Shown here in pieces: positions 32,422 through 54,882 of a stretch of DNA of 64,000 nucleotides (position 1 is the stretch's first letter; every line of letters begins with the position of its first letter). Made by a program: the position numbers and the translations under genes. Below the pieces are notes generated by a model, which was given only the letters and a program-made list of their open reading frames with translations, was not told the origin of the DNA and did no database searches. Source of the stretch: Saccharomonospora viridis DSM 43017 (lineage in GTDB: Bacteria; Actinomycetota; Actinomycetes; Mycobacteriales; Pseudonocardiaceae); the NCBI RefSeq assembly GCF_000023865.1, contig NC_013159.1, positions 2,196,001 to 2,260,000 on the forward strand, given 5' to 3'.

Positions 32422-32423
32422 GA

Positions 32424-36134: not shown

Positions 36135-37886
36135 ATGGTGGATCTTGCCAACGCCGCGCTGGATGAACCGCAAGAATTGCCATTCCGACGACACGTCATT
36201 CCGCTGCGGGAGTTACTCAACCTCCGCTGCCTCGAACGAACCGCGATCCTCGCCGGCGAAGGCGGTCTCGACCGTGCTGTTTCCGCGGTCAACGTGATGG
36301 AAGTCCCCGATGTCCTGGACTGGGTCAAACCGCAAGAACTTTTGGTGACCACCGGATACCCACTCGCCACGGGAAACGAGGATCCGGCCGAAATGCTCAC
36401 CGAGCTGGTACCCGAGTTCCACCACCGTAAGCTCGCCGGAATCGGCATCAAACTGGGCCGCTACCTCGACACCGTTCCCGAACGGGCGCTGGCCCTGGCC
36501 GACGAACTCGACTTCCCCGTGTTGCGTCTCCCGCTGGACCTGGCCTTCGACGATCTCATCGAACAGACCTTCGCCCAGCTCGGCCAACGCCAGGCCGACG
36601 CACTCTCCCGCGCCGACACCCTGCACACCAGCCTCTCCCGGCTGATCCTCAATGGCGCGGACCTCGATCAGATCAGCGCCGAAGTGGCACGCGTGCTCGG
36701 CGTCAGCATCGTGGTCACCTCGACCGACGGCCGGGAATGGGGCGGAGCACTGGAGGACGGCCTGCGGGAGCGTCTCGCCGACATCGGCTTGCTCGACAAC
36801 TCGGGCCGGTTCCGGGTCGAACGCCTCACCACCGGCCCCTACCCCCTGGAAGGCGGGGAGGCGAGGGTGTTGCCCGTCCCCGCCGGTGGCAACGACCTGG
36901 CACGACTGGTCTGCGTCAGCCCGCATCGCGTCCTGGGCTTCGACGACGTCCAAGCCCTCGAACGCACGGCCATCGTCGTGGCGTTACTGCTCACTCGGCA
37001 ACAAGCCGTGGCCGTGGTGGAGAACAAATACCGCGGCGACTTCCTCCGGGACGTGTTCCTCGATCGCGCCGGGGACGAGGCGTTCGTCATCGAGCACGCC
37101 CGGACCTTCGGGTGGGAACTCGACCGGCCGACCGTGGTGCTGTCCGCCGAACTGGACCCGTTGGACCCCACGGAGGAGCCGGTGTCCGACCGCACCCGTC
37201 GGCTCTGGCAGGAACGCTTCGCCGCCGCGTGGCGACAGGTGTGCGAAGCACGGGACCGTTCCATCGCCACGGTCGACTTCTCCACCGAGGTCGTCAGCCT
37301 GCTGCCCGCATCCCTGCCGGCCGACTCCCTGCGCACGGTCGTCGACCAACTCGTCGGAGCGGTCGCGGGGGACCAAGGGGGTGGCCGGCGCCCGTTCTCC
37401 GTCGGGGTCAGCCGGGTCGTGTCCTCGGTGTCGGAACTGCCCCACGCCTACAACCAGGCGCGACGAGCCGCCAAGATCGGTCGACGGATCAACGGCGGCC
37501 GGTGCACGACGTGGTTCGACGACCTCGGTCTACACCGGCTCATCGCGCTCGTACCGGACCCTCAGGAGCTACGCGAGTTCGTCGACGACATGCTGGGCGA
37601 GCTGGCCGCCGACACCCCCGAGGCCGCGGACCTGCGCACCACATTGCAACTGTTGCTCGACACCAACCTCAACGTCGCCGAAGCCGCGCGCAAACAGTTC
37701 TTCCACTACAACACCATGCGCTACCGGATCACCAAACTGCAGGCGATGCTCGGCCCGTTCACGACCGATCCCGTCCTCCGGCTCAACATCGCGGTGGCGT
37801 TGCAGGTACTCGACTTCCAGCACTGCAAAGAGCGTCGGAAACCGTCCGAGGCCCCGCTTCGGTCCGCTTCGCAAACCACGACATGA
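36135..37886 (+). CDS. PucR-family transcriptional regulator
   Basis: A 583-residue regulator. Residues about 15-135 are the PucR N-terminal sensor (VIPLRELLNLRCLERT, VMEVPDVLDWVKPQELLVTTGYPL). The middle is a CdaR GGDEF-like segment (RPFSVGVSRVVSSVSELPHAYNQA split), and the C-terminus is the PucR HTH (LLLDTNLNVAEAARKQFF, HYNTMRYRI). An in-frame GTG two codons upstream is possible. PucR proteins control purine or amino acid catabolic genes. Its position ahead of the permease-hydroxylase-hydrolase genes on the same strand suggests it senses a pyrimidine or a breakdown product. Confidence 0.93.
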   Translation: MVDLANAALDEPQELPFRRHVIPLRELLNLRCLERTAILAGEGGLDRAVSAVNVMEVPDVLDWVKPQELLVTTGYPLATGNEDPAEMLTELVPEFHHRKLAGIGIKLGRYLDTVPERALALADELDFPVLRLPLDLAFDDLIEQTFAQLGQRQADALSRADTLHTSLSRLILNGADLDQISAEVARVLGVSIVVTSTDGREWGGALEDGLRERLADIGLLDNSGRFRVERLTTGPYPLEGGEARVLPVPAGGNDLARLVCVSPHRVLGFDDVQALERTAIVVALLLTRQQAVAVVENKYRGDFLRDVFLDRAGDEAFVIEHARTFGWELDRPTVVLSAELDPLDPTEEPVSDRTRRLWQERFAAAWRQVCEARDRSIATVDFSTEVVSLLPASLPADSLRTVVDQLVGAVAGDQGGGRRPFSVGVSRVVSSVSELPHAYNQARRAAKIGRRINGGRCTTWFDDLGLHRLIALVPDPQELREFVDDMLGELAADTPEAADLRTTLQLLLDTNLNVAEAARKQFFHYNTMRYRITKLQAMLGPFTTDPVLRLNIAVALQVLDFQHCKERRKPSEAPLRSASQTTT

Positions 37887-37947
37887 AAGGGAAATACGCC
37901 ATCCGATGCGGTATCGGACGAGCAAGGTGTGCCAGCACGGACGGTGT

Positions 37948-37967
37948 TTGTTCGGCAGATGTGGCCA
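37948..37967 (+). promoter_or_regulatory. Candidate regulatory site upstream of the nucleobase permease
   Basis: TTGTTCGG-N7-GGCCA resembles the TTCGTTGG-N7-TGCCA pattern found upstream of hyuA and of the barbiturase gene, with the same 7-nt spacing but weaker half sites. It may be a PucR binding site. Confidence 0.3.
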
Positions 37968-38039
37968 GTGCAGGGGTGTGACCTAGAGCATTAGCGTCAC
38001 CCGAAGCTCGGGCTTGACCCTCAACGACGAGGTGGTTCC

Positions 38040-39425
38040 TTGCCAAGATCCATGTTCAAGTGGGACGTTGTCCACGGAGGAAAGGCCCCGCCACGGGGTG
38101 CGTCGGTCGGGCCGTTGGAACGGCTCAGCTGGGGACGCACGCTGGGGCTCGGCGCGCAGCACGTGGTGGCGATGTTCGGCGCCACGTTCGTCTTCCCCGT
38201 GGTGATGGGGTTGGACCCCAACCTTGCGATCATGTTCTCGGGGATCTGCACGATCATCTTCCTGCTGATCGTGCAGAACCGGGTCCCCAGTTACCTGGGG
38301 ACCAGCGCGGCATTCGTGGCCGCCGTGGCCGCGATCCGCGAACAGGGCGGCGATTCGGCCCACGTGACCGGCGCGATCCTGGTCGGCGGCCTCGTTCTGG
38401 CGCTGATCGGCGTGATCATCCACATCGGTGGCGCACGGATCATCCACAAGGTGCTCCCGCCCGCGGTCACCGGAGCGGTGATCATGCTCATCGGGTTCAA
38501 CCTCGCACCCGTGGTCGCGGGCACCTACTGGCACCAGGATCAATGGGTCGCACTCGCCACGGCCACGTTCATGGTGCTCGCGGCGGTGCTGCTGCCCGGT
38601 TTCTGGTCCCGTATCGCGGTGTTCCTCGCCCTGGTGTTCGGCTATGTCATCTCCTGGCTGGCCGATCTGCTCTTCGGTGAGATCACGTCGGTGTTGCCGG
38701 ACAGCGGAGGCGAAGCGGTCCCGCACCCGCGGGTCTCCTGGGACGAGGTGGCGACCGCGGACTGGATCGGGCTGCCCAGCGGCACGCTCGCCGACGGTGT
38801 CCCCGTCATCCACGCACCCTCGTTCTCCCTGACCTTCATCCTGCTGGTCCTGCCCGGAGTGATCGCGTTGGTCGCGGAGAACACCGGTCATGTCAAGGCG
38901 GTCGCGGAGATGACGGGAGAGGACCTCGACCCCTACATGGGACGTGCCATCGGAGCGGACGGCATCGCCACCGCGTTGGCGAGCGCGTTCGGTGGTTCAC
39001 CGACCACCACCTACGCCGAGAACATCGGCGTCATGGGCACCACCCGGGTGTACTCCACGGCCGCCTACTACGCGGCCGCCCTCGTGGCCATCCTGCTCGG
39101 CCTGTGCCCCAAGTTCGGCGCCGTCATCAACGCCGTCCCCGGAGGGGTCCTCGGCGGCATCACCATCGTCCTTTACGGAATGATCGGCCTGGTCGGAGCC
39201 AAGATCTGGGTGGAGAACCGCGTCGACTTCGGAAACCCCGTCAACCTCATCGGACTCGCGGCGGGCCTGATCGCGGGGATCGGCGGCGTCAGCTTGTCCT
39301 TCTCCGAACATTTCGAGCTCGGAGGCATCGCCCTGGGCACCATCCTGGTGATCGTGTACTTCCACCTGGTCAAGGGGCGGGGGCAGAAGCCGGGCTCAGC
39401 CGAGGAGGTGACCCAAAACCCATGA
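38040..39425 (+). CDS. NCS2 family nucleobase permease (uracil/xanthine type)
   Basis: A 461-residue nucleobase:cation symporter-2 with 12-14 membrane segments. I chose the TTG at 38040 because AGG of GAGGTGG lies 7 nt ahead; the first ATG is at 38052. Signature regions: GAQHVVAMFGATFVFPVVMG, SYLGTSAAF, ENTGHVKAVAEMTGED with the conserved Glu, GGSPTTTYAENIGVMGTTRVYS split over about 310-335, and NPVNLIGLAAGLIAGIGG. The pattern with TYAENIG is closest to UraA/RutG/PyrP uracil transporters. It overlaps the next gene by 4 bp. Confidence 0.93.
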   Translation: MPRSMFKWDVVHGGKAPPRGASVGPLERLSWGRTLGLGAQHVVAMFGATFVFPVVMGLDPNLAIMFSGICTIIFLLIVQNRVPSYLGTSAAFVAAVAAIREQGGDSAHVTGAILVGGLVLALIGVIIHIGGARIIHKVLPPAVTGAVIMLIGFNLAPVVAGTYWHQDQWVALATATFMVLAAVLLPGFWSRIAVFLALVFGYVISWLADLLFGEITSVLPDSGGEAVPHPRVSWDEVATADWIGLPSGTLADGVPVIHAPSFSLTFILLVLPGVIALVAENTGHVKAVAEMTGEDLDPYMGRAIGADGIATALASAFGGSPTTTYAENIGVMGTTRVYSTAAYYAAALVAILLGLCPKFGAVINAVPGGVLGGITIVLYGMIGLVGAKIWVENRVDFGNPVNLIGLAAGLIAGIGGVSLSFSEHFELGGIALGTILVIVYFHLVKGRGQKPGSAEEVTQNP

Positions 39426-40306
39426 AACCGGCCCCGTTCACATTCTCCCGGCCGGCCTGCCTGCATGAAGCGCTGGACCTTCTGGCCGTGAATCCCGACG
39501 CGAAGGTCCTCGCCGGTGGACAAAGCCTCATCCCGTTGCTGTCGATGCGACTGGCGTCGCCGTCGATGCTCATCGACATCAACGGCATCACCGAGTTGTC
39601 CTACGTGACGTGTGACGACACCGGCGTGCGCATCGGCGCGTTGGCGCGGCACGCCGAGGTCGAAACGCACGAGCAGGCACGACGGGTGCAGCCGCTGCTG
39701 TCCCAGGCCCTGCGGCTGGTCGCCAACCCCACCATCCGCAACAGGGGCACCACCGTGGGCTCGATCGTGCACGCCGACGCCACGGCGGAGATGCCCATGG
39801 TGCTGTGCCTGCTGCAAGGCAGTGTCACCGCCGCGTCCACCCAGGGCACCCGCACGATCCCGGCGCACGAGTTGTACGTCGGGCCGTTGGAGTCGTCCGT
39901 CCGTGCCGACGAGATCGTCACCGAGGCCTTCTTCCCCGCCCTACCGGCCGGTGCCGGTGTGGCCTTCGAACAAGTGGCCCGCCGACACGGCGACTACGCG
40001 TTGTGCGGCGTCGCCGCGGTGGTCGACTCCGACCCGGACGGCCGGATCACCTCGGTGCGGGCGGGGTATCTGTCCGTGTGCGACGTGCCGACCGTGGTCG
40101 ACCTGTCGGAGGCGTTCGCCGCGCAGGAGTTGACCGAACAGGCGTTGCACGACGCGGCGGAGCTCGCCTCGGCGTCGTTGGACCCCACCGGGGACATCCA
40201 CGCCAGTGCCGCCTACCGCGGCGAACTCGCCCGCGTCCTGACCCGACGCGCGGTGCGTGCCGCGTACGACGACTCCCGGTCTCGGCACGTGGAGGTGCGA
40301 GTATGA
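39422..40306 (+). CDS. FAD-binding subunit of a molybdenum hydroxylase
   Basis: A 294-residue medium subunit of the xanthine dehydrogenase/CO dehydrogenase family. FAD motifs are AGGQSLIPLL (about 34-43) and the second site RGTTVGSIVHADATAEMP. The C-terminal CO_deh_flav_C domain follows. Its ATG overlaps the permease stop (ATGA). It passes electrons from the iron-sulfur subunit to an acceptor via FAD. Confidence 0.95.
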   Translation: MKPAPFTFSRPACLHEALDLLAVNPDAKVLAGGQSLIPLLSMRLASPSMLIDINGITELSYVTCDDTGVRIGALARHAEVETHEQARRVQPLLSQALRLVANPTIRNRGTTVGSIVHADATAEMPMVLCLLQGSVTAASTQGTRTIPAHELYVGPLESSVRADEIVTEAFFPALPAGAGVAFEQVARRHGDYALCGVAAVVDSDPDGRITSVRAGYLSVCDVPTVVDLSEAFAAQELTEQALHDAAELASASLDPTGDIHASAAYRGELARVLTRRAVRAAYDDSRSRHVEVRV

Positions 40307-40827
40307 GCGAGGAACTGCACGAGGTACGCCTGCACGTCAACGGCACCGTCCACCAGGTTCGGTTACCCGCCAGACGGTTGCTCAGCGACGCCCTGCGCCA
40401 CGACCTGCGGTTGACCGGAACCCATGTCGGGTGCGAACACGGCGTGTGCGGCGCGTGCACGGTGCTCGTGGACGGCAAACCGATGCGCTCGTGTCTGATG
40501 TTCGCGGTCTCCGCACAGGACTACGAGATCACCACCGTCGAGGGGTTGACCGAGGCCGACGGCTCCTTGAGCCCGGTACAGCAGGCGTTCAAGGACTGTC
40601 ACGGCTTGCAATGCGGTTTCTGCACCCCCGGATTCCTCACCACGATCACCGCTGGTTTGGCGGAGAACCCCCGGCCGACACGTGAGGAGGCCAAGGAGAT
40701 GATCGCCGGCAACCTGTGCCGGTGCACCGGCTATCAGAACATCGTCTCCGCGGTGTGCCGGGCCGCCGAACTCGCCGCACGACGACGCGATGAGGCTGCA
40801 CGAGAGCGGGAAGAGAGCACATCGTGA
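40303..40827 (+). CDS. [2Fe-2S] subunit of a molybdenum hydroxylase
   Basis: A 174-residue small subunit. The plant-type cluster is bound by Cys in GCEHGVCGACTVLVDG and MRSC; the second cluster by CGFCTPGF and NLCRCTGYQ. It overlaps both neighbours by 4 bp. The C-terminal 20 residues are Arg/Glu-rich and form an extended tail. Confidence 0.96.
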   Translation: MSEELHEVRLHVNGTVHQVRLPARRLLSDALRHDLRLTGTHVGCEHGVCGACTVLVDGKPMRSCLMFAVSAQDYEITTVEGLTEADGSLSPVQQAFKDCHGLQCGFCTPGFLTTITAGLAENPRPTREEAKEMIAGNLCRCTGYQNIVSAVCRAAELAARRRDEAAREREESTS

Positions 40828-43211
40828 CAACCAAACTGCTGGGTGAGAGGGTTCGTCGCGTCGAGGACGAACGTCTGGTACGAGGCAAGGGACAGTACGT
40901 CGACGACCTGCTGCCGGACGCGCTCGAGGTCGCCGTACTGCGAAGTCCGCACGCCCATGCGCGCATCGTGGACATCGACGTCGAACCGGTGCTGGACATC
41001 GAGGGTGTCGTGGCGGTGTACACCTATGACGACCTCACCGGAGCGATGGCCGATCCCCTGCCGGTGTTGATCCCCCACCCCACGCTGACCCATGGCCGCA
41101 CCCAGTACGCCCTGGCGAAGGACGAGGTGAACTACGTCGGCGAGGCGATCGCGATGGTGGTGGCCGAGAACCGCTACATCGCCGAGGACGCCGTGTCCCG
41201 CATCAGGGTCGAGTACGAGGTCCTCCCCGCGGTGATTGGTGTGGACGCGGCCCGGGCCGCCGAGAACCTGGTCCACGACGACGTGCCCGGCAACGTGGCC
41301 GCCCGGATGGAACAGTCGGTGGGTGACGCGGAGGCGGCGATCGCAGCGGCACCACATCGGCTCACGTTGGACCTGGAGATCGAACGCAGCGCCTCGATGC
41401 CGATGGAGGGCCGCGGGACCGTGGCCCGCTGGGACACCGACTCCCGCAGGTTGCAGGTGTGGACGTCGACCCAGACCTCGACGGGCGTGCGTGCCGCCGT
41501 CGCCGCGAAACTGGGCTTGGACCTGGCCCAGATCGACGTGATCACCCCGGACGTCGGGGGCGGGTTCGGGGTGAAGATCCTGCACCCGTGGCCGGAGGAA
41601 CTCCTGGTGCCGATGGCCGCGATGAAGCTGGGCCGCCCGGTGAAGTTCACCGAGGACCGTCGGGAGCACTTCATCTCCTCGGCGCACGAACGCGGCCAGA
41701 AACACCACGTGGAGGTCGGTTTCGACGACGACGGTCGGCTGCTCGGACTGTCGGTGCGGTTCTGGCACGACCACGGCGCCTACATCCCGTACGGTCTCAT
41801 CGTCCCGATCATCACCTCCACCCAGCTGCTCGGCCCGTACAAACCGGGCAACTACAAGGTCGTCTTCGACAGCCTCTACACCAACACGGTCGTGGTGACG
41901 CCGTATCGCGGCGCCGGTCGCCCCCAAGGGGTGTACGTGATGGAGCGGACGATGGACGCGATCGCGGCCTACCTGGGCAAGGACCGGACCGAGGTGCGGT
42001 CGGTGAACTTCATCCAGCCCGACGAGTTCCCCTACGACCACGGCCTGATCTTCCAGGACGGCAAACCCCTGGTGTACGACTCGGGCAACTTCCCGGCGTC
42101 GTTGGAGAAGTTGAAGAAACTCATCGGCTGGGACGAGTTCGAGGCGTTCCGGGACGAGCTACGCGCCCAAGGGCGACGTGTCGGGATCGGCATGGCCTGC
42201 TATGTCGAAGGCACGGGTGTGGGGCCGTACGAGGGCGCGCACATCACCGTCGAGACCAGCGGCAAGGTCAAGGTCGCCATCGGCTTGACCTCTCAGGGCC
42301 AAGGGCACGAGACCGCGTTCGCCCAGATCGTCGCCGACGAACTCGGCGTGCCGTTCGAGGACGTCGAGGTGGTCACCGGGGACACGCGCCGCATGCAGTA
42401 CGCCGTGGGCACGTTCGCCTCCCGCGCCGCCGTGATGAGCGGGTCGGCGGTGGCGCTGTCCGCACGCAAGGTGAGGCAGAAGGCGCTGCGCATCGCCGCC
42501 GAGGCGTTGGAGGCGTCGGTGGACGACCTCGAGATCCGCGACGGCATGGTGCGGGTGAAGGGCGCACCGAACCAGCAGATGAGCCTGGGCACGGTGGCGG
42601 TGCTGTCGAACCCCCTGCGATACGCCTTCGACGAGGCGTCCCAGGCCGCGACCCAGTTCTCCATCGGCGATCCCGACAAACCGCCGATCGCAGAAGACGA
42701 CGAACCGGGCCTGGAAGGTCGGGACTTCTACTCCCCGGAGCGATCCACCTTCGCCAACGGGATGCACGCCGCCATCGTGGAGACCGATCCGGAGACGGCC
42801 GAGATCCGCATCCTCAAGTACGCGGTGGTGCACGACTGCGGAACCTTGATCAACCCGTTGATCGTGGAGGGCCAGATCCACGGTGGTGTCGCACAGGGTG
42901 TCGGCGGCGCCCTGTACGAACGGATGGTCTACGACGATTCGGGCCAGCTGTTGAACGCGTCCTTCATGGACTTCCTCCTGCCCTACGTCAGCGAGGTCCC
43001 CGACTCGATCGAGATCGACCATCTGGAGACCCCGTCCCCGCTGAACCCACTCGGCATCAAAGGTGCCGGTGAGGCCGGGGTGATCCCGTGCTCGGCGGTG
43101 TTCGCCTCCGCCATCGAGGACGCCGAGGGGTTCCCCATCACGTCGATGCCGATTTCCCCCTCCGAGCTCTACGAACTTCGGCTTCGTCATGAGAAAGGAT
43201 CGACGACATGA
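40824..43211 (+). CDS. Molybdopterin-binding catalytic subunit of a molybdenum hydroxylase
   Basis: A 795-residue large subunit starting at a GTG that overlaps the preceding stop. It has the N-terminal hammerhead (RVEDERLVRGKGQYVDDL), DVGGGFGVK, the PYRGAGRPQG loop and a C-terminal KGAGEAGVIP with the catalytic Glu. The loop is of the AYRGAGR (form II CoxL) type and lacks the Cys-containing CO dehydrogenase loop, so this is not a CO dehydrogenase. The neighbours (nucleobase permease, barbiturase, PucR) make hydroxylation of uracil/thymine at C6, giving barbiturate, the most likely reaction; xanthine or hypoxanthine is the alternative. Confidence 0.93.
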   Translation: MTTKLLGERVRRVEDERLVRGKGQYVDDLLPDALEVAVLRSPHAHARIVDIDVEPVLDIEGVVAVYTYDDLTGAMADPLPVLIPHPTLTHGRTQYALAKDEVNYVGEAIAMVVAENRYIAEDAVSRIRVEYEVLPAVIGVDAARAAENLVHDDVPGNVAARMEQSVGDAEAAIAAAPHRLTLDLEIERSASMPMEGRGTVARWDTDSRRLQVWTSTQTSTGVRAAVAAKLGLDLAQIDVITPDVGGGFGVKILHPWPEELLVPMAAMKLGRPVKFTEDRREHFISSAHERGQKHHVEVGFDDDGRLLGLSVRFWHDHGAYIPYGLIVPIITSTQLLGPYKPGNYKVVFDSLYTNTVVVTPYRGAGRPQGVYVMERTMDAIAAYLGKDRTEVRSVNFIQPDEFPYDHGLIFQDGKPLVYDSGNFPASLEKLKKLIGWDEFEAFRDELRAQGRRVGIGMACYVEGTGVGPYEGAHITVETSGKVKVAIGLTSQGQGHETAFAQIVADELGVPFEDVEVVTGDTRRMQYAVGTFASRAAVMSGSAVALSARKVRQKALRIAAEALEASVDDLEIRDGMVRVKGAPNQQMSLGTVAVLSNPLRYAFDEASQAATQFSIGDPDKPPIAEDDEPGLEGRDFYSPERSTFANGMHAAIVETDPETAEIRILKYAVVHDCGTLINPLIVEGQIHGGVAQGVGGALYERMVYDDSGQLLNASFMDFLLPYVSEVPDSIEIDHLETPSPLNPLGIKGAGEAGVIPCSAVFASAIEDAEGFPITSMPISPSELYELRLRHEKGSTT

Positions 43212-43873
43212 AGATCGCCGGACAGGCCACCCTGCACGCTCCGGTCGACAAGGTCTGGGAGGCGTTACTGGACCCGGCGGTGTTGGTCCGCACCATCCCC
43301 GGGTGTGAGCGGTTGGAGACCACCGGTGAGAACGCCTACGCCATGACCGTCACCGCCGGCGTCGCCTCGATCAGGGGGACCTACACGGGCACGTGCACGC
43401 TGAGCGATCTGCAACCGCATCGCTCACTGGTGCTGTCGGCCGAGGGCTCCGGGGCCCCGGGCACGGTCAGCGCGAAGGTCACGGTGACCTTCCAGGACAA
43501 TCAGGACGGTACGACCTCGTTGTCCTACGACGCCGATGCCGTGGTCGGAGGGATGATCGGTGGGGTCGGGCAACGGATGCTGTCGTCGGTGAGCAAACGC
43601 CTGGCCGGTGAGTTCTTCTCCGCCGTGGACGACATCCTGACCGGCGCCGACGCGGCCGCGGTGACGACGGCGGCGGTCTCCCCCGCCGACACCGGCCCGG
43701 GCCGAGCCGAGCCCGCCGCCCCGACGGCGCACACCCCGGGCGTGTTCACCGCCCCGACGGCGAAGACCTCGGCCCCCGCACAGGAGAACTTCCTGACCGG
43801 ACTGCTCGTCGGTGCGGGACTGACGCTTCTCGGGGTGATCGTGGGTTCCCTCACCACGCGAAGCCGCCGCTGA
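43208..43873 (+). CDS. CoxG-like SRPBCC protein with a C-terminal membrane anchor
   Basis: A 221-residue protein. Residues 1-145 are the CoxG/SRPBCC domain (LHAPVDKVWEALLDPAVL, IPGCERLE, KRLAGEFFSAVDD). An Ala/Pro/Thr linker and a membrane segment (LTGLLVGAGLTLLGVIVGSL) followed by RSRR form the tail. CoxG anchors CO dehydrogenase to the membrane in known systems, so this protein probably holds the hydroxylase near the electron-transport chain. It overlaps the large-subunit gene by 4 bp and is followed by a strong terminator. Confidence 0.92.
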   Translation: MKIAGQATLHAPVDKVWEALLDPAVLVRTIPGCERLETTGENAYAMTVTAGVASIRGTYTGTCTLSDLQPHRSLVLSAEGSGAPGTVSAKVTVTFQDNQDGTTSLSYDADAVVGGMIGGVGQRMLSSVSKRLAGEFFSAVDDILTGADAAAVTTAAVSPADTGPGRAEPAAPTAHTPGVFTAPTAKTSAPAQENFLTGLLVGAGLTLLGVIVGSLTTRSRR

Positions 43874-43899
43874 GTGGAGGACACATCGCGGACGGTCGT

Positions 43900-43935
43900 C
43901 GACAGGCGCCACCCGGCCTCGGGTGGCGCCTGTCG
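43900..43935 (+). terminator. Terminator after the hydroxylase operon
   Basis: A perfect 16-bp stem (CGACAGGCGCCACCCG and its complement) with a 4-nt loop lies 27 bp past the CoxG stop. It separates the permease-hydroxylase unit from hyuA. Confidence 0.85.
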
Positions 43936-44026
43936 TCGTTGTTCCGCCGAGCAGCCCTTCCGGCCTGTTTCCTCAGCGTCGAGGAGGAGCCGACCCGTTT
44001 GGCACACAGTGACGGCGGAACGGTTG

Positions 44027-44046
44027 TTCGTTGGCGAATCATGCCA
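44027..44046 (+). promoter_or_regulatory. Candidate regulatory site and promoter of hyuAB
   Basis: TTCGTTGG-N7-TGCCA followed by TGGTCGGG lies 37-56 bp ahead of the hyuA ATG. The same half sites and spacing occur at 48396-48415 ahead of barbiturase, and both regions run into CTGCATG about 41 bp later. A shared regulator, probably PucR, is inferred. Confidence 0.5.
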
Positions 44047-44082
44047 TGGTCGGGCTCTGTCGTACCCGCTTGAATCGGCTGC

Positions 44083-46203
44083 ATGAGCGAGCAACGTCGC
44101 ATCCGCATCGGGATGGACACCGGAGGAACCTTCACCGACGTCGTCGCCTTCGACGAACGCACGGGGGAACTGGTCACCACCAAATCACCCTCCACACCGG
44201 ACGATCCGGCCGAGGGTTTCATGGCGGCCATCGACAAGGTCCTCACCGTGCTGGGATTCGCCGAAGACGACCACGAAGCCAGAGGCGGCGCGATCAGCGC
44301 GGTCAGCCACGGCACCACGGTGGCCACGAACCAGTTGCTGGAAGGCAAAGTCGGCGATCTGGGTTTCATCACCAACGAGGGCTACGAGGCGGTCCTCGAG
44401 ATCGCCCGACAAAGCGTCCCCGACGGATACGGGAACTCCTATTTCTGGGTGAAACCCGACCGGATCGTGCCCCGGGACCTCGTACGGTCCGTGCGCGGCA
44501 GGCTGGATTACACCGGCGCGGAGATCAGGCCCTTCGACGAGGAGCAGGCCCGTGAGGTCGCCCGGTGGTTCAAGGCCAAGGGCATCAACGCCCTCGGGGT
44601 CTGCTTCCTGCACGCCTACGCCAACCCCGCACACGAGGAACGCATGCGCGACATCATCGCGGAGGAACACCCCGACGCGGTGGTCTCCATCTCCTCCGAG
44701 GTGCTGCGCGAATACCGCGAGTACGAACGTTCCATGACCACCCTGGTCGACGCGGCGGTGAAACCGCGGCTCTCGCGGTACATCAACAACATCAAGTCGA
44801 GGCTGGACGCCTTCGTCGGCTCCGGTCAGGACACCGGCGTGCCGCTGTACGTGATGAAGTCGAACGGTGGCGTGCTCAGCGCCGACGAGGTGGTCCATCA
44901 GCCGATCACGACGGTGCTGTCCGGACCTGCGGCGGGCGCGCTCGGCGCAGCGTTGATCGCGAAGACCGCGGGCTTCGACAAGGTGCTCACCTGCGACGGC
45001 GGGGGCACGTCGACGGACGTCTCGGTGGTCGTCGACGGCGAGCCGAGCCTGACCACCGAAGGAACCGTCGGCGTGTACCCGTGCAAGATCCCGATGATCG
45101 ACGTGGTGACCGTCGGAGCGGGTGGCGGATCGGTCGCCTGGCTGTCCCCGGAAGGCAACCTCAAGGTGGGCCCCCGCTCGATGGGAGCGGACCCCGGCCC
45201 CCTGTGCTACGGCAAGGGCGGCACCGAGGTCACGATCACCGACGCCCACGTGGTCCTCGGCCGCATCCCACCCCACCTGCTCGGCGGGGAGATCCCCCTC
45301 GACGTCGAGGCCGCCCGCAGAGGGATCGACGCACTGGCGGGCAAACTGGGTCTTTCCCTGGAACGATGCGCCACCGGCGCGCTGGAGATCTCCGCGTGGA
45401 ACCAGGCCAACGCACTGCGGCAGATCACGGTCCAGCGGGGCCTGGACGTACGGGACTTCACCTTGACCACGTTCGGCGGTTCGGGGTCGCTGCTGCTGTG
45501 CCGGTTGATGGACATCCTCGGGCTGAGCACCGTCCTCGTCCCGCCCAACCCCGGTAACGTCTCGGCGTTCGGACTGCTCACCGTGGACGTGAAGAACGAC
45601 TACGTCCGCACGAACGTCTGCCTGCACGACGCGCTCACCCCCGAGGCGCTCGCGACGGTGTACGGCGAACTCACCGAACAGGCCCGAGCCGCGCTGGTGA
45701 AGGAAGGCTTCGCGGAAGAGGAGCACACGTTCGTCCGTGCCGCCGACATCCGGTACTTCGGCCAGGCCTTCGAGGTGCGGGTCCCCGTGCCGGACGGACC
45801 GATCACCCGGGAACTCATCGACGAGGTGGCCCGCCGGTTCCACGCCGAGCACCGAGCCCTGTACGGCTACGACTTCGACGGCGACGACAGTCAACAGGTG
45901 GAGTGGGTCAACCTCCGCGTCGCCGGCATCGGCGAGATCCGACGCCCCGAGCTGGTCGCCCACGACATCCCGGCGGACGTCCCGGCCCCGGAGCCTGCGT
46001 CCCACCGCCCGGTGTGCTTCGACGCGGGACAGGGCTATGTGGACACACCGATCTACTGGCGTCCCGATCTTTGCCCCGGTCAGGTCCTCCACGGCCCGGC
46101 GATCGTGGAGGAGTTCGGGGCCACGGTGCCGTTGCACCCCGGATTCACCGCCCGCGTCGACGCCTACCTCAACATCATCGTGACCCGGAAGGAACAGGAA
46201 TGA
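44083..46203 (+). CDS. hyuA: HyuA-type hydantoinase/oxoprolinase subunit A
   Basis: A 706-residue ATP-dependent amidohydrolase A subunit. The actin-like ATPase motifs are IGMDTGGTFTDVVAFD (9-24), SHGTTVATNQLL, SGPAAGALGAAL, CDGGGTSTDVSVV and GSVAWLSPEGNLKVGPRS. Members hydrolyse cyclic amides such as N-methylhydantoin, 5-oxoproline or acetone-type carboxylation substrates, always with a B subunit. No ribosome site is seen before the ATG, which may mean a leaderless transcript. It overlaps hyuB by 4 bp. The substrate here is not known. Confidence 0.93.
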   Translation: MSEQRRIRIGMDTGGTFTDVVAFDERTGELVTTKSPSTPDDPAEGFMAAIDKVLTVLGFAEDDHEARGGAISAVSHGTTVATNQLLEGKVGDLGFITNEGYEAVLEIARQSVPDGYGNSYFWVKPDRIVPRDLVRSVRGRLDYTGAEIRPFDEEQAREVARWFKAKGINALGVCFLHAYANPAHEERMRDIIAEEHPDAVVSISSEVLREYREYERSMTTLVDAAVKPRLSRYINNIKSRLDAFVGSGQDTGVPLYVMKSNGGVLSADEVVHQPITTVLSGPAAGALGAALIAKTAGFDKVLTCDGGGTSTDVSVVVDGEPSLTTEGTVGVYPCKIPMIDVVTVGAGGGSVAWLSPEGNLKVGPRSMGADPGPLCYGKGGTEVTITDAHVVLGRIPPHLLGGEIPLDVEAARRGIDALAGKLGLSLERCATGALEISAWNQANALRQITVQRGLDVRDFTLTTFGGSGSLLLCRLMDILGLSTVLVPPNPGNVSAFGLLTVDVKNDYVRTNVCLHDALTPEALATVYGELTEQARAALVKEGFAEEEHTFVRAADIRYFGQAFEVRVPVPDGPITRELIDEVARRFHAEHRALYGYDFDGDDSQQVEWVNLRVAGIGEIRRPELVAHDIPADVPAPEPASHRPVCFDAGQGYVDTPIYWRPDLCPGQVLHGPAIVEEFGATVPLHPGFTARVDAYLNIIVTRKEQE

Positions 46204-48143
46204 ACACGACCGTCAAGGGGCGTCGGGTACCGACCCAGTTTCCGTTCGGATCGCTCACCGCGGACGCCGGTGCCAGCGCCGACCCGGTGTTGGTGGAGAT
46301 CGTGCAGGGCAGTCTCGCCTCGGTCGAGATGGAGGTCGAGACCGCCATCGCCCGCACCTCGCGCAGCCCGATGATCCGCGATGCCCACGACTTCCGCGCC
46401 GGTATCCACGACCGGCTGTTACGCAAGCTGACCGGCCGGTCCTACAGCGCACTGGTGCACCCGGTGGTCCGCGACTTCCCACTGGAGGAGATGCGGCCGG
46501 GCGACGTCTTCTTCCACAACGACGTCTACGAATCCGAAGGCGGCATCGGCCATCTGCCCGACCTGTGCGTGACCGTGCCCGTCTTCCACGACTCCGGCAA
46601 CGGCCCCGAGGTGGTCGCGTTCGTGCAGGCGTTCGGGCATCACGACGACATCGGCGGCGCCGTGCCGGGGTCGATGCCCAGCAACGCCACCAGCGTCTAC
46701 GAGGAAGGTCTGATGGTGCCGCCCATCCGGCTGTGGGAGGAGGGCAAACCGAACCGGGCGGCACTGCGGATCATGACCCGCAACTCCCGGATGCCCGAAT
46801 CGTTGGCGGCCGACCTGGACGCGGAGTGCGCGGCATGCCTGATGGGCGCGCGGCGGCTCGGGGAACTGTTCGACCGCTACGGCCGCGACACCGTCGAGGC
46901 GTGCTTCGACGCGATCATCTCGCGCACGACCCAGACCTACCGACGGGAGATCCTGTCCAAGATCCCGGTGGGAACCTGGGTGTGGGAGGACTACGCCGAG
47001 CACGACGGGGTCGAGGAGCCGAAACTGCACCGGCAGCGGATCACACTCACCCGGACGGCGCCGGACGACCCCGAGGGGGAACGGCTGATCTTCGACTTCA
47101 GCGGGACCTCACCGCAGGCGAAGGGGCCGATCAACCACTGCGGTGACTACTCCGACGGGGTCTTCCTCAAGAAATGGCTGGCCCCGATCCTGCGGAATCT
47201 CGCGGACACCCCGGAGCGGATGGCGGAACTGGACGTCAACGAGGGCGTGGTCCCGCTGATCGAGATGCGGTTCCCCGAACCGGGGACACTGTTGACCCCG
47301 GTCTTCCCGGCTCCGACCAACGCCAGGACGTTCGTCATCCTGCGACTGTTGGGTGTGCTGGCCGGGGTGATCGCGAAAGCGGTCGACGGCAACATGCCCG
47401 CCGATCAGGAGACGATCCGCTACACAGGGGTGTACGGCACGGACCACGACGGTCGTCCGTATCTCATGCGGGAGGTCCTCGGCGGCGGTTCGGGAGGCCG
47501 CTATTACGCCGACGGGGAGGACACCATCCACGTCGTGCCCGACTCCCGCAACCTCCCCACGGAGTTCACCGAATCCCGGTTCCCGTTCCTGGTGGAGAAG
47601 CTGTCGCTGGCGGTGGACTCCGGTGGCCCGGGGAAGTTCCGTGGTGGCCTGGGATACGAAAAGCACATCCGGATGCTCCGCGACGCGCATTTCATGTCGA
47701 TCGCGGACCGGTCGATCCTGTCCTGCTGGGGCGTCAAGGGCGGCAAGGCCGGCCGTCCGTTCGAGGTGACCATCGATCCGGGTGGCCCCAATGAACGGCG
47801 GGTCGGTGCGCTGGCCGACGCCGAACCGGTCCGTGCCGGTGAGGTGATCCGGATCCGCACCACCGGAGGCGGCGGTTGGGGTGATCCGCTGGAGCGGGAC
47901 CCGAAGCTGGTGGTGCGCGACGTGCGGTGGCACAAGGTCTCCCCCGAAGGCGCGTTCCGCGACTACGGCGTGGTGCTCACCGGCTCGGTGGAGGACGACT
48001 CCCTGGACTACGACGAGGACGCCACCCGGAAGGAGCGGCAACGGCGGCAGGAGAAGGCCGCCGAGACGGCGTTCTTCGACCGCGGTCCCGGCTACGCACA
48101 GCTCAGTGGTGGTGCGACCGCGGCCGAGGTCGACTGGCTGTGA
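46200..48143 (+). CDS. hyuB: HyuB-type hydantoinase/oxoprolinase subunit B
   Basis: A 647-residue B subunit. Conserved blocks are DPVLVEIVQGSLASVEMEVE, GDVFFHNDVYESEGGIGHLPD (a metal-binding region split here), VQAFGHHDDIGG, PGSMPSNATS and GGSGGRYYADGED. It carries the metal-dependent hydrolase site that works with the ATPase subunit HyuA. The C-terminal 80 residues are acidic and less conserved. It ends 34 bp before a terminator hairpin. Confidence 0.93.
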   Translation: MNTTVKGRRVPTQFPFGSLTADAGASADPVLVEIVQGSLASVEMEVETAIARTSRSPMIRDAHDFRAGIHDRLLRKLTGRSYSALVHPVVRDFPLEEMRPGDVFFHNDVYESEGGIGHLPDLCVTVPVFHDSGNGPEVVAFVQAFGHHDDIGGAVPGSMPSNATSVYEEGLMVPPIRLWEEGKPNRAALRIMTRNSRMPESLAADLDAECAACLMGARRLGELFDRYGRDTVEACFDAIISRTTQTYRREILSKIPVGTWVWEDYAEHDGVEEPKLHRQRITLTRTAPDDPEGERLIFDFSGTSPQAKGPINHCGDYSDGVFLKKWLAPILRNLADTPERMAELDVNEGVVPLIEMRFPEPGTLLTPVFPAPTNARTFVILRLLGVLAGVIAKAVDGNMPADQETIRYTGVYGTDHDGRPYLMREVLGGGSGGRYYADGEDTIHVVPDSRNLPTEFTESRFPFLVEKLSLAVDSGGPGKFRGGLGYEKHIRMLRDAHFMSIADRSILSCWGVKGGKAGRPFEVTIDPGGPNERRVGALADAEPVRAGEVIRIRTTGGGGWGDPLERDPKLVVRDVRWHKVSPEGAFRDYGVVLTGSVEDDSLDYDEDATRKERQRRQEKAAETAFFDRGPGYAQLSGGATAAEVDWL

Positions 48144-48177
48144 CAGCGGCACCGCACCGCTGACCGCACGGATTCAC

Positions 48178-48211
48178 AGGGCGTGGGACGGGTTCGACCC
48201 TCCCACGCCCT
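48178..48211 (+). terminator. Terminator after hyuAB
   Basis: An 11-bp stem (AGGGCGTGGGA and complement) continues as GGG/CCC around TTCGA after a single bulged base. It is followed by CGTCGTCTTTCG. The remaining 400 bp up to the barbiturase gene hold only the regulatory site described at 48396. Confidence 0.8.
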
Positions 48212-48395
48212 CGTCGTCTTTCGACCATCGGTCGGACACGACCACCGATCGCGCGGGAAAGGCCGTCGAAGGCGCGACACCGCGTCCGCCATGTCGCCAC
48301 CACGTCGGCCATCCCGAGTCCGGATGCTCCCGAGACCTCCCATTGCCGCGACCGAGAGCGGGAGTCGATGGCAGGAACTGCCCTACTGTGGCGAC

Positions 48396-48415
48396 TTCGT
48401 TGGTGGAAGTTGCCA
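48396..48415 (+). promoter_or_regulatory. Candidate regulatory site and promoter of the barbiturase gene
   Basis: TTCGTTGG-N7-TGCCA, then ATGATCGGG, repeats the hyuA upstream pattern. A -10-like TACAGT lies at 48440-48445. If transcription starts near 48450 the barbiturase mRNA has a leader of about 160 nt, which contains a 41-codon frame from the ATG at 48453 to 48578. Confidence 0.5.
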
Positions 48416-48611
48416 ATGATCGGGAACGGGCCGCCGTCCTACAGTCGACTGCATGCGGGCGCCGCTCGTCTCACCAGCTCAGGAATCGGCACGCGGCCGC
48501 AGTACCCGCTGTTCCCCCGACGGAACGGCCCCTACACGTGTCTGTCCGACTCCGGCTCGATCGTCGAGAAACGTTTGATCCGATCCTGTCCGTACGAAAG
48601 GGAATCCTGAC

Positions 48612-49745
48612 ATGCCAGACGCGATCGAAGTGCGCAAGGTTCCGATCCACTCCGTCTCCGACGCCAGCGAACTCGCCAAGCTCATCGACGACGGGGTGAT
48701 GGAAGCCGACCGCATCATCGCCATCATTGGCAAGACCGAGGGCAACGGCGGGGTCAACGACTACACCCGCATCATCGCCGACCGCGCCTTCCGGGAGGTC
48801 ATCGTCGAGAAGGGCTCCCGGACGATGGAGGAGGTACGTCAGATCCCCATCGTGTGGTCGGGCGGCACCGACGGCGTCATCAGTCCACACGCGACTGTCT
48901 TCGCGACCGTACCCGAGGACCGGGTCGAGAAGACGGACGAACCCCGCCTCACCGTCGGCATCGCGATGAGCGAACCGATCCTGCCCGAGGAGATCGGCCG
49001 TCGTCCGATGATCGAGAAGGTCGCCGCCGGGGTCAAGGATGCGATGGCCCGAGCCGGTATCACCGACCCCGCCGACGTGCACTACGTGCAGACGAAGACA
49101 CCTCTGCTGACCATCGACACCATCCGGGACGCCAAGAGCCGCGGGAAGTCGGTGTGGACCGAGGACACCCTCCGCTCGATGGACCTGTCCAACGGCACCA
49201 CCGGTCTGGGCATCGCGGTCGCGCTCGGTGAGATCGACATGCCCAGCGACGAGGACGTCCTGAAAAACCGCGACCTGTTCTCCTCCGTCGCGTCCTGTTC
49301 GTCCGGTGTCGAGTTGGACCGGGCGCAGATCGTGGTGGTGGGCAACGCCCGCGGGGTCGGCGGCCGTTACCGGATCGGCCACTCGGTCATGCAGGACGCG
49401 CTGGACCAGGACGGTATCTGGCAGGCCATCCGGGACGCCGGACTGAAGCTTCCGGAGAACCCGCACCCGAAGGACATCGACGGACGCCTGGTCAACGTGT
49501 TCCTCAAGTGCGAGGCGTCGCCGGACGGCACCGTGCGGGGCCGCCGCAACGCGATGCTGGACGACTCCGACGTGCACTGGCACCGGCAGATCAAGGCCTG
49601 TGTCGGTGGGGTCACGGCGGCGGTCACCGGAGACCCGGCCGTGTTCGTGTCGGTCTCGGCCGTGCACCAGGGCCCGGCCGGCGGCGGTCCCGTCGCGGCG
49701 ATCGTCGACCTGGGTGACGAACCGACCGGCTACCGCCACCGCTGA
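48612..49745 (+). CDS. Ring-opening amidohydrolase (barbiturase/cyanuric acid hydrolase family)
   Basis: A 377-residue protein of the three-repeat barbiturase/AtzD family. The Lys/Ser pairs of the family are visible: Lys41 ([16 protein letters not shown]) with Ser83 ([12 protein letters not shown]), Lys162 ([10 protein letters not shown]) with Ser231 ([10 protein letters not shown]), and Lys328 (RQIKACVGG) with Ser349 ([16 protein letters not shown]). The family opens barbiturate to ureidomalonate or cyanurate to carboxybiuret. The operon context (nucleobase permease, molybdenum hydroxylase, amidase) favours barbiturase and oxidative pyrimidine breakdown. Sequence alone does not separate the two activities. 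Confidence 0.92.
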
Positions 49746-49752
49746 CCTTGTG

Positions 49753-49798
49753 CCGGTGAAGGGCTCCGCCACACCCGATGTGGTGGACCCTTCACCGG
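49753..49798 (+). terminator. Hairpin between barbiturase and amidase genes
   Basis: CCGGTGAAGGG at 49753-49763 pairs perfectly with 49788-49798, and the stem continues for nine more pairs with one mismatch around a CCCGA loop. It lies 8 bp past the barbiturase stop. It probably terminates or attenuates transcription before the amidase gene. Confidence 0.75.
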
Positions 49799-49844
49799 TT
49801 CGAACCTGCCCGTGCCAGATCACCGAACAGAGGCGAGAAAAGCG

Positions 49845-51284
49845 ATGCCCGACGAGGAGTTGTGTTTTCGGTCCGCGACCGAGCTGGTCCAGTTGCTTCA
49901 CCGCCGGGAGTTGTCGGCCCGTGAACTGCTGGCGGCACATCTACAGCGCATCGAGACGATCAACCCGAAGATCAATGCGATCGTGACCTTGGTTCCCGAA
50001 CACGCGGAGCGTGCCGCCGCGGCCGCCGATGAGGCGATCATGAGCGGTGAACCCTTGGGCCCGTTGCACGGACTTCCGGTGGCGCACAAGGATCTCACCG
50101 AGACCAAAGGCATCCGCACCACCTACGGCTCACCGGCGCGGGCGGACCACGTCCCCGACGTCGACAGTGTCGTGGTGGAAAGCCTGACCAAGGCCGGCGC
50201 GGTGACGGTGGGCAAGACCAACACCCCGGAGTGGGGCACCGGTTCCCAGACGTACAACGCCGTCTTCGGCGTCACCCGCAACCCCTACGACCTGTCCAAG
50301 ACCTCGGGTGGAAGCAGTGGCGGCGCGGCCGCCGCGTTGGCGGCCCGGCTCGTGCCGATCGCCGACGGCACCGACATGGGCGGGTCACTGCGTAATCCGG
50401 CGAGCTTCTGCAACGTGGTGGGCCTACGCCCCTCGGTGGGCCGGGTGCCGGTGTGGCCGAGCGCCGACCCGATGTTCACCTTCGCCGTGGCCGGGCCGAT
50501 GGCGCGCACCGTCGCCGACGTGGCGTTGCAGATGCGGGTGCTGGGCCGACCGGACCCGCGGTCACCGCTGTCACATCACGTGCCCGCCGAACGCTTCGCC
50601 GACTCGCTGGAGCGGGACTTCACCGGAACGTCGGTCGCGTGGAGCGCCGACCTGGGCGGTCTTCCGGTGGACGAGCGGGTGGTCCAGGCGATGGCCCCCG
50701 CCAGGGAGGTGCTGACCGACCTGGGCTGTCAGGTCGCCGACCGTGACCCGGACATGACCGGTGCCGACGAGGTCTTCCGCACGTGGCGGTCCTGGTACTA
50801 CGTGTTGACGCTGGACGAGCTGTACCGGGAACAGCCGGAGGCGTTCGGTGCCAGCACCGCGTGGAACATCGAGGTCGGTCGCAAGGTCACGGCCGAGGAC
50901 CTCGTGCGGGCGCAGCGTCTCCGCACGGCCCTCTACCACCGGATGCGCGAGTTCCTCGACACCTACGAGTTCTTGGTGACCTTGGTGTCGCCCGTGCCGC
51001 CCTTCGACGTCGAGACGAAGTATCCCGAAAGCGTGGCCGGGGTGGCCTCCGAAAGCTACCTGGACTGGATGCGCGCCTGCTACTGGATCTCCGCCACCGG
51101 CCTGCCCGCGGCCTCCGTGCCGTTCGGGTTCACCCCCGAAGGACTGCCCGTGGGGTTGCAGATCGTCGGCCGCCCCGGTGACGACTTCGGGGTGCTGCAG
51201 CTCGCGCACGCGATCGAGGGCGCCACCCAGGCGGGTCAGCGACTCCCGGACCTCACCGATTCGACCACGTCGAACGCGTCCTGA
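49845..51284 (+). CDS. Amidase signature family enzyme (candidate ureidomalonase)
   Basis: A 479-residue amidase. The Ser-cisSer-Lys triad is visible: Lys in PVAHKDLTETKG (about residue 83), the GGSSGGAAAALAARLVPIADG segment split at about 158-178 with both Ser residues, and TDMGGSLRNPAS. The ATG at 49845 follows GAGGCGAG. In this locus the missing step after barbiturase is hydrolysis of ureidomalonate to malonate and urea, so this is the natural candidate. It could instead act on a carbamoyl product of HyuAB. A bidirectional terminator follows. Confidence 0.9.
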   Translation: MPDEELCFRSATELVQLLHRRELSARELLAAHLQRIETINPKINAIVTLVPEHAERAAAAADEAIMSGEPLGPLHGLPVAHKDLTETKGIRTTYGSPARADHVPDVDSVVVESLTKAGAVTVGKTNTPEWGTGSQTYNAVFGVTRNPYDLSKTSGGSSGGAAAALAARLVPIADGTDMGGSLRNPASFCNVVGLRPSVGRVPVWPSADPMFTFAVAGPMARTVADVALQMRVLGRPDPRSPLSHHVPAERFADSLERDFTGTSVAWSADLGGLPVDERVVQAMAPAREVLTDLGCQVADRDPDMTGADEVFRTWRSWYYVLTLDELYREQPEAFGASTAWNIEVGRKVTAEDLVRAQRLRTALYHRMREFLDTYEFLVTLVSPVPPFDVETKYPESVAGVASESYLDWMRACYWISATGLPAASVPFGFTPEGLPVGLQIVGRPGDDFGVLQLAHAIEGATQAGQRLPDLTDSTTSNAS

Positions 51285-54764: not shown

Positions 54765-54882
54765 TGCTTCGATCACCCTCCCGGCAGATCGGCGGCAATC
54801 CCCGGAAGCCGAAGTGGGCATGCCGACCGGCTTCCGTACCCGGTTGCTGTCCATCCTGCCTCGGCTGATCGACAATCACGGC

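What the first reader, a model, noticed from the sequence alone, without database searches (positions are those of the whole stretch)
36135..51284. Candidate complete oxidative pyrimidine degradation locus
Seen: PucR regulator, NCS2 permease with the uracil-type TYAENIG motif, three-subunit molybdenum hydroxylase plus CoxG, HyuA/HyuB, a barbiturase-family enzyme with all Lys/Ser pairs, and an amidase, all on one strand. Known: Rhodococcus and Nocardia oxidise uracil/thymine to (methyl)barbiturate, which barbiturase opens to ureidomalonate and ureidomalonase splits to malonate and urea. Inference: this locus encodes uptake plus the whole route, with genes for steps that rarely have assigned genes.
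Basis: partly seen in the sequence, partly recalled or inferred. Interest (0 to 1): 0.75.

Follow-up and report, generated by a model that had tools for sequence, protein, structure and literature searches.

The report
Uracil-to-barbiturate degradation gene cluster
Ten adjacent genes in a heat-loving compost bacterium very probably let it take up uracil, oxidise it to barbituric acid and break that ring open; the cluster points to the gene for an oxidising enzyme known only as an activity, and to extra enzymes that the textbook pathway does not explain.

Summary
Observation confirmed: ten same-strand genes at 36129-51284, five junctions overlapping by 4 nt. The ring opener is a true barbiturase: 85% identical to that of Rhodococcus erythropolis NBRC 15567, itself 368/369 to PDB 5hwe 'Barbiturase', and it lacks the motif that defines cyanuric acid hydrolases. 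R. erythropolis carries the same neighbourhood.

New here: the molybdenum hydroxylase, named 'aerobic CO dehydrogenase' by NCBIfam (NF040766), lacks the CO-dehydrogenase loop and shares barbiturase's distribution: all 19 barbiturase genomes and 0 of 81 others among 100 relatives; 68 of 69 in a 345-genome class sample (2 further genomes have it alone). It is my candidate for uracil/thymine dehydrogenase. HyuAB is linked almost as tightly (18 of 19), which the cited route does not predict. In relatives a carbamate kinase sits directly upstream of barbiturase (86 of 96 loci), hinting at a carbamoyl-phosphate branch; the window's genome has no match to it, and no urease or urea carboxylase over cut-off.

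'Complete' is not shown. The amidase as ureidomalonase is weak: close orthologues in 4 of 19 barbiturase genomes and 1 of 81 others. HyuAB's step is unresolved: one genome has hydroxylase and HyuAB without barbiturase, another the reverse.

The parts
36129..37886 (+). PucR-family regulator, probable regulator of the cluster
   Evidence: Pfam PucR 5e-30, GGDEF_2, HTH_30; relatives cluster as D22 in 8 of 97 loci. Regulation inferred.
38052..39425 (+). NCS2 nucleobase permease, RutG/UraA-like, with TYAENIG
   Evidence: RutG model 358 bits, uracil permease 266, xanthine permease pbuX 158
39422..40306 (+). Mo hydroxylase, FAD subunit
   Evidence: FAD_binding_5 4e-45
40303..40827 (+). Mo hydroxylase, [2Fe-2S] subunit
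   Evidence: Fer2_2 4.5e-30
40824..43211 (+). Mo hydroxylase, molybdenum subunit; proposed uracil/thymine dehydrogenase
   Evidence: NF040766 1541 bits; same 19 of 100 genomes as barbiturase; 68 shared of 69 and 70 in 345; no CSFR loop
43208..43873 (+). CoxG-type accessory protein
   Evidence: COXG 3.5e-25
44083..46203 (+). HyuA, ATP-binding subunit of an ATP-dependent amidohydrolase
   Evidence: Hydantoinase_A 3e-91; 18 of 19 barbiturase genomes, next best match anywhere 44%
46200..48143 (+). HyuB, metal-binding subunit
   Evidence: Hydantoinase_B 1.5e-138; HLPD at residue 118
48612..49745 (+). barbiturase
   Evidence: 700 bits to PDB 5hwe against 333 or less to the six other matches; 85% to R. 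erythropolis
49845..51284 (+). amidase-signature hydrolase; possible ureidomalonase or malonamate amidase
   Evidence: Amidase 1.6e-105; weak co-occurrence

Best explanation
An operon for oxidative degradation of uracil (perhaps also thymine). The RutG-like permease imports the base. The three-subunit Mo hydroxylase oxidises uracil at C6 with oxygen from water and gives barbiturate; I propose it is the uracil/thymine dehydrogenase whose gene, as far as I recall, was never assigned. Barbiturase opens the ring to ureidomalonate. HyuAB and the amidase do the remaining C-N cleavages towards malonate; which of them cleaves which bond is open. Shown by sequence: barbiturase identity, enzyme classes, operon layout, co-occurrence. 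Inferred: substrates, direction, PucR as regulator, end products.
For: Barbiturase 85% identical to the R. erythropolis enzyme. The Mo subunit at 67% or more is in exactly the 19 of 100 relatives that have barbiturase, next best 47%; 68 of 69 barbiturase genomes in a 345-genome class sample, 2 with the Mo subunit alone. In G098 and G065 it is on another contig than barbiturase and in G071 31 kb away, so this is more than operon inheritance. R. erythropolis locus L042 has bar, NCS2, PucR, amidase, the same hydroxylase, CoxG and the start of HyuA, and a uracil phosphoribosyltransferase gene beside bar. XdhC, MobA-like, CoxD-like and CoxE-like genes stand in some relatives' loci, as expected for a Mo hydroxylase.
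Against: No substrate tested. NF040766 names the Mo subunit CO dehydrogenase and NF052395 names the barbiturase cyanuric acid amidohydrolase, over its cut-off. The permease is below RutG's cut-off. Genomes G121 and G358 have hydroxylase and HyuA without barbiturase, G118 barbiturase without the hydroxylase found; G358 is rated 100% complete. Co-occurrence was not corrected for ancestry.
Confidence: 0.83

Rival explanations
1. On the open step, reading A: HyuAB is a second ring opener, an ATP-dependent hydrolase for 5-methylbarbiturate (thymine branch) or for barbiturate itself, parallel to barbiturase; the amidase then splits the ureido acid to (methyl)malonate and urea.
For: Characterised ATP-dependent lactamases and hydantoinases of this family act on cyclic amides (PMC8453981, passages); N-methylhydantoinase is the best solved relative of HyuA (466 bits). 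G358 has hydroxylase and HyuAB but no barbiturase in the genome search (E up to 1e-30) or in the 57.5 kb read; G299 has hydroxylase and barbiturase but no HyuAB in the 38 kb read or at E up to 1e-150: what partly redundant ring openers would give.
Against: Does not explain the carbamate kinase next to barbiturase, nor why two ring openers are kept together in 64 of 72 genomes with any of the three.
Confidence: 0.38
2. On the open step, reading B: HyuAB splits ureidomalonate with ATP to malonamate and carbamoyl phosphate; carbamate kinase, where present, recovers the ATP; the amidase (or a nitrilase in other loci) turns malonamate into malonate; CaiB and an AccDA-like enzyme, where present, take malonate to acetyl-CoA.
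For: Carbamate kinase on the same strand within -50 to 400 nt upstream of barbiturase in 86 of 96 loci; at 50% identity in 14 of 19 barbiturase genomes and 0 of 81 others. Precedent: oxalurate, the next lower homologue, is split to oxamate and carbamoyl phosphate and fed to carbamate kinase in urease-negative bacteria (PMC11326118, passages). Urease is not enriched: 9 of 19 against 38 of 81. Nitrilase-family gene D26 in 8 loci.
Against: Ureidomalonate is open-chain, unlike the cyclic amides of characterised relatives. The window, Rhodococcus and others have HyuAB but no kinase at the locus (10 of 96 loci; none in G000). The oxalurate enzyme is AllFGH, not HyuAB. Kinase and urease are not complementary: urease in 8 of 14 kinase genomes, 1 of 5 without. 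Ureidomalonase was reported as giving urea (cited in PMC3758960).
Confidence: 0.27
3. The Mo enzyme is a CO dehydrogenase, or a hydroxylase for purines or another heterocycle, that merely lies beside a barbiturase.
For: NCBIfam name; best solved relative is quinoline 2-oxidoreductase, 470 bits, CO dehydrogenases next at 375-423.
Against: CSFR loop in 0 of 26 orthologues, PYRGAGRP in 25 of 26, the other being a fragment (that CSFR marks CO dehydrogenase is recalled). Distribution tied to barbiturase. Uracil-type rather than xanthine-type permease.
Confidence: 0.1
4. The ring opener acts on cyanurate and the cluster is a triazine pathway.
For: NF052395 (cyanuric acid amidohydrolase) scores 486 bits over its cut-off of 360.
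Against: 700 bits to barbiturase, 333 or less to the six other solved family members. The features said to define cyanuric acid hydrolases against barbiturases, an Arg at AtzD R194 and the motif SGGxExQGPxGGGP (PMC9118981, passage), read Asn194 and [14 protein letters not shown] here. The partners do not fit a triazine.
Confidence: 0.03

Closest known systems
Oxidative pyrimidine degradation of Rhodococcus erythropolis JCM 3132 (barbiturase, ureidomalonase; Soong et al. 2001 and 2002, papers not held, known from citing papers and recall)
   Same: Barbiturase 85% identical to that of R. erythropolis NBRC 15567; the same hydroxylase, permease, PucR, CoxG, HyuA and a distant amidase around bar in that strain
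   Different: The cited route has no HyuAB; gene order differs; the window has no phosphoribosyltransferase, CaiB or carboxyltransferase beside bar
ATP-dependent lactamase/hydantoinase family (caprolactamase CapAB, N-methylhydantoinase)
   Same: Two subunits, same Pfam domains
   Different: Far below the curated cut-offs of CapA (505 of 1000 bits) and CapB (177 of 1000); substrate unknown
Oxamic transcarbamylase plus carbamate kinase (AllFGH, AllK) of E. coli
   Same: In relatives a carbamate kinase accompanies an enzyme that makes an acyl urea
   Different: AllFGH were not seen near barbiturase among the families listed (partial list); no kinase in the window's genome
Rut pathway of uracil degradation
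   Same: RutG-like permease
   Different: No Rut enzyme among the ten genes; the rest of the genome was not searched for it

Membership tests
Barbiturase (AtzD/TrzD superfamily) | Closest to a characterised barbiturase, not to cyanuric acid hydrolases | tested here: met
   700 against 333 bits or less; 5hwe is 368/369 to R. erythropolis NBRC 15567
Barbiturase (AtzD/TrzD superfamily) | Three Ser/Lys pairs | tested here: met
   K41/S83, K162/S230, K299/S347
Barbiturase (AtzD/TrzD superfamily) | No Arg at AtzD R194 and no SGGxExQGPxGGGP motif, which mark cyanuric acid hydrolases | tested here: met
   Asn194; [14 protein letters not shown]; criterion from PMC9118981 passage. PMC4051656 gives glutamine for this position in barbiturases; I read Asn in the window and in 5hwe
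Barbiturase (AtzD/TrzD superfamily) | Hydrolyses barbiturate, not cyanurate | not testable with these tools
   Needs the protein
Xanthine oxidase family Mo hydroxylase | FAD, [2Fe-2S] and Mo subunits; active-site Glu segment | tested here: met
   GAGEAG in 26 of 26 orthologues (that this holds the catalytic Glu is recalled)
Aerobic CO dehydrogenase (form I CoxL) | Active-site loop AYxCSFR (recalled) | tested here: not met
   CSFR in 0 of 26
Uracil/thymine dehydrogenase | Oxidises uracil to barbiturate | not testable with these tools
   Inferred from co-occurrence
Ureidomalonase | Hydrolyses ureidomalonate to malonate and urea; I know of no reference sequence | not testable with these tools
   Amidase is only a candidate; its co-occurrence with barbiturase is weak
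ATP-dependent lactamase/hydantoinase (HyuAB) | HyuA and HyuB domains | tested here: met
   HLPD at HyuB 118
ATP-dependent lactamase/hydantoinase (HyuAB) | Cut-offs of the caprolactamase equivalogs | tested here: not met
   CapA 505 of 1000 bits, CapB 177 of 1000: not filed as caprolactamase

The most novel reading that the evidence does not exclude
Oxidative uracil degradation has an undescribed energy-conserving branch: HyuAB splits ureidomalonate to malonamate and carbamoyl phosphate, which a carbamate kinase tied to barbiturase by operon position in most Actinomycete loci examined (and lost in the window's lineage) turns into ATP, ammonia and CO2, so that both nitrogens are released without urease; and the database family 'aerobic CO dehydrogenase group 5' is really uracil dehydrogenase.
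Probability: 0.25. Interest if true: 0.8.

Novelty: new variant of a known kind. Interest (0 to 1): 0.62.

Why it matters
The oxidative route was described in the 1950s (stated in PMC3758960, passage), yet I found no gene assigned to its first enzyme (searches of an open-access library only). This gives one concrete candidate, present also in a species in which the pathway was studied, and would correct a database name that counts these bacteria as possible CO oxidisers. It also shows that a pathway drawn with three enzymes is encoded with an ATP-dependent hydrolase nearly everywhere, and in most relatives with a carbamate kinase, so its end may not be as drawn.

Tried and rejected
Rejected: cyanurate as substrate; CO dehydrogenase. 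A tmRNA call at 42068-42597 lies antisense inside the Mo subunit gene and is taken as false. AllFGH-like enzymes as source of carbamoyl phosphate: not seen in a Pfam scan of 73 proteins upstream of barbiturase, picked by me from 91 candidates; only 25 of the 89 matched families are listed, so they are not excluded. Urease as the sink of urea: no enrichment. Carbamate kinase as a substitute for urease: the two are not complementary. My first ORF clustering took wrong frames in places and was replaced. Dropped before counts: L023 (same place as L044) and L038 (40% homologue in G079) from the locus set; G079, G188, G194 and G216 (37-42% homologues only) from the barbiturase counts.

Not done: structure prediction, a search of the genome for reductive or Rut pyrimidine genes, a test of co-occurrence corrected for ancestry. 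Of the 14 library papers that mention barbiturase I saw passages of nine; the other five I know from the listing only.
Full report
What is there. The window is G000:C1:2196001-2260000 of a one-contig genome of 4,308,349 bases, exactly the length reported for Saccharomonospora viridis P101T (PMC3035233, passages); I take it to be that strain. Ten + strand genes run from 36129 to 51284: PucR, NCS2 permease, FAD, 2Fe-2S and Mo subunits, CoxG, HyuA, HyuB, barbiturase, amidase. Five junctions overlap by 4 nt, so the transport-oxidation set and the HyuAB pair are probably co-translated. Family assignments are secure.

Barbiturase. The protein matches PDB 5hwe 'Barbiturase' with 700 bits and the best cyanuric acid hydrolase with 333. 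5hwe is 368/369 identical to the protein of R. erythropolis NBRC 15567, to which the window protein is 85% identical. The three Ser/Lys pairs are kept. PMC9118981 (passage) gives an Arg at AtzD R194 and the motif SGGxExQGPxGGGP as marks of cyanuric acid hydrolases; the window reads Asn194 and [14 protein letters not shown]. PMC4051656 (passages) describes glutamine at that place in the barbiturase subgroup; I read asparagine in both the window and 5hwe and could not settle the difference. NCBIfam's NF052395, cyanuric acid amidohydrolase, is nevertheless exceeded (486 bits, cut-off 360), so that name over-reaches.

The R. erythropolis locus (L042). Around bar there are an XdhC-like gene, PucR, NCS2, an AccDA-like carboxyltransferase, CaiB, PucR, bar, an amidase (41% to the window's), a class III aminotransferase, a second NCS2, FAD, FeS and Mo subunits, CoxG and the start of HyuA at the edge of the fetched stretch. 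A uracil phosphoribosyltransferase gene is divergent from bar; I recall that Soong et al. 2002 reported such a gene beside bar. So the species in which the pathway was studied carries the same set.

Co-occurrence in 100 relatives (G000 included). Barbiturase at 69% or more over the matched part is in 19 genomes (in G072 only fragments at contig ends; a 20th match, G079 at 40%, is another clade). The Mo subunit at 67% or more is in exactly these 19; the next best match is 47%. In G098 and G065 it lies on another contig than barbiturase, in G071 31 kb away. HyuA at 65% or more is in 18 of the 19, next best 44%. The exception, G084, has a contig that ends 7.6 kb after the Mo subunit, while its congener G071 has HyuA 7.9 kb after it, so it is probably an assembly gap. 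Within the window's own genus, 3 of 12 genomes have barbiturase and the same 3 have the hydroxylase and HyuA at 82% or more.

Co-occurrence in the class sample (345 genomes; I take it that the three calls drew the same genomes, as tallies and listed handles agree). Barbiturase is in 69, NF040766 in 70 (69 over cut-off), HyuA (E up to 1e-150) in 68. Barbiturase and hydroxylase share 68, all three share 64, 72 have any. Fisher's p is about 1e-68 but treats genomes as independent. Discordant: G118 (barbiturase and HyuA, no hydroxylase found); G121 and G358 (hydroxylase and HyuA, no barbiturase); G202 (HyuA only); G147, G191, G299 and G302 (no HyuA at the threshold). G302 does have HyuA, in two pieces. 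G299, rated 100% complete, has none in the 38 kb around its hydroxylase and barbiturase and no carbamate kinase there. G358, rated 100% complete, has PucR, NCS2, hydroxylase, CoxG and HyuAB in a row and no barbiturase in the genome search or in the 57.5 kb read.

The Mo enzyme. NF040766, an 'exception' model named aerobic carbon-monoxide dehydrogenase large subunit, gives 1541 bits. The CSFR string of the CO dehydrogenase loop (recalled) is in 0 of 26 orthologues; PYRGAGRP is in 25, the 26th being a fragment. The best solved relative is quinoline 2-oxidoreductase. Given the distribution I propose that this family is uracil/thymine dehydrogenase. In some relatives MobA-like, AAA (CoxD-like), VWA (CoxE-like) and XdhC genes stand in the same stretch, as expected for such an enzyme.

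Beyond the window. I compared 80 named loci (the best kept of 575 found, a capped list) and 16 from unnamed relatives; no two of the barbiturases are identical over residues 21-340. A carbamate kinase lies directly upstream of barbiturase on the same strand in 86 of 96; it is absent in ten, five of them Rhodococcus or Rhodococcoides. One representative passes TIGR00746 narrowly (360 against 358 bits), another does not (327); the six best solved matches of a third are all carbamate kinases. At 50% identity it is in 14 of 19 barbiturase genomes and 0 of 81 others. CaiB at 60% is in 16 of 19 and 7 of 81; the carboxyltransferase is not specific. The window has none of the three. Its genome has no carbamate kinase match at E up to 1e-3, no urease match and no urea carboxylase over cut-off. 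Urease is not enriched with barbiturase: 9 of 19 against 38 of 81.

How it most likely works. Uptake, oxidation of uracil to barbiturate and ring opening to ureidomalonate are well supported. After that two readings compete. Reading A: HyuAB is a second, ATP-dependent ring opener, perhaps for 5-methylbarbiturate; it fits the known chemistry of the family (PMC8453981, passages) and the mirror-image genomes G358 and G299. Reading B: HyuAB splits ureidomalonate and yields carbamoyl phosphate; it explains the carbamate kinase and the indifference to urease and has a precedent in oxalurate splitting (PMC11326118, passages), but not the genomes with HyuAB and no kinase. I lean slightly to A and regard the kinase as the best unexplained clue. 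The amidase is the least certain part: close orthologues are in 4 of 19 barbiturase genomes and in G003, which lacks the pathway, though in R. erythropolis a more distant amidase also sits beside bar, and in 8 loci a nitrilase-family gene occurs.

What is known and what is new. The pathway and barbiturase are known. The papers of Soong (2001, 2002) and Seffernick (2012) are not held and are used only through citing passages or recall. Searches of the open library showed no paper that assigns a gene to uracil dehydrogenase or ureidomalonase or puts HyuAB with barbiturase; these were seen as listings, with passages of nine of the 14 barbiturase papers, and subscription papers could still hold it.

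Noticed in passing
window 30606-35248, - strand: Chorismate-binding enzyme, AMP-binding enzyme, isochorismatase, carrier protein and siderophore-interacting protein in a row: looks like genes for a catecholate siderophore.
   Followed up: no
window 42068-42597, - strand: ARAGORN calls a tmRNA antisense inside the Mo subunit gene; taken as a false positive.
   Followed up: no
window 54814-56355, + strand: A second amidase-signature gene beside a TetR regulator gene, 3.5 kb downstream of the cluster.
   Followed up: no
NCBIfam NF040766 and NF052395 as applied to window 40824-43211 and 48612-49745: Both database names (CO dehydrogenase; cyanuric acid amidohydrolase) are probably wrong for these proteins.
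   Followed up: partly
L061:4145-4621 and cluster D42 in L063, L066, L068, L098: A small deaminase gene in the barbiturase stretch of five loci; four scanned match TadA at 81-88 bits, below the cut-off of 150. A cytosine deaminase would feed the pathway; not tested.
   Followed up: partly
L061:3296-4129 and cluster D9 (22 of 97 loci); L127:15856-16665: An NmrA-like NAD(P)-binding protein follows HyuB in several loci, also in G358, which lacks barbiturase; role unknown.
   Followed up: partly
G405:C5:423113 and G405:C1:503156: One genome carries both a barbiturase (81%) and a 39% homologue of the cyanuric acid hydrolase type.
   Followed up: no
L126:9873-11333 (G003): A close orthologue of the window's amidase in a congener without the pathway, near catalase, type III polyketide synthase, transketolase and tyrosine-degradation-like genes.
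   Followed up: yes
L042:12801-13991 (R. erythropolis): A class III aminotransferase gene between the amidase and the second permease; it has no place in the drawn pathway.
   Followed up: no
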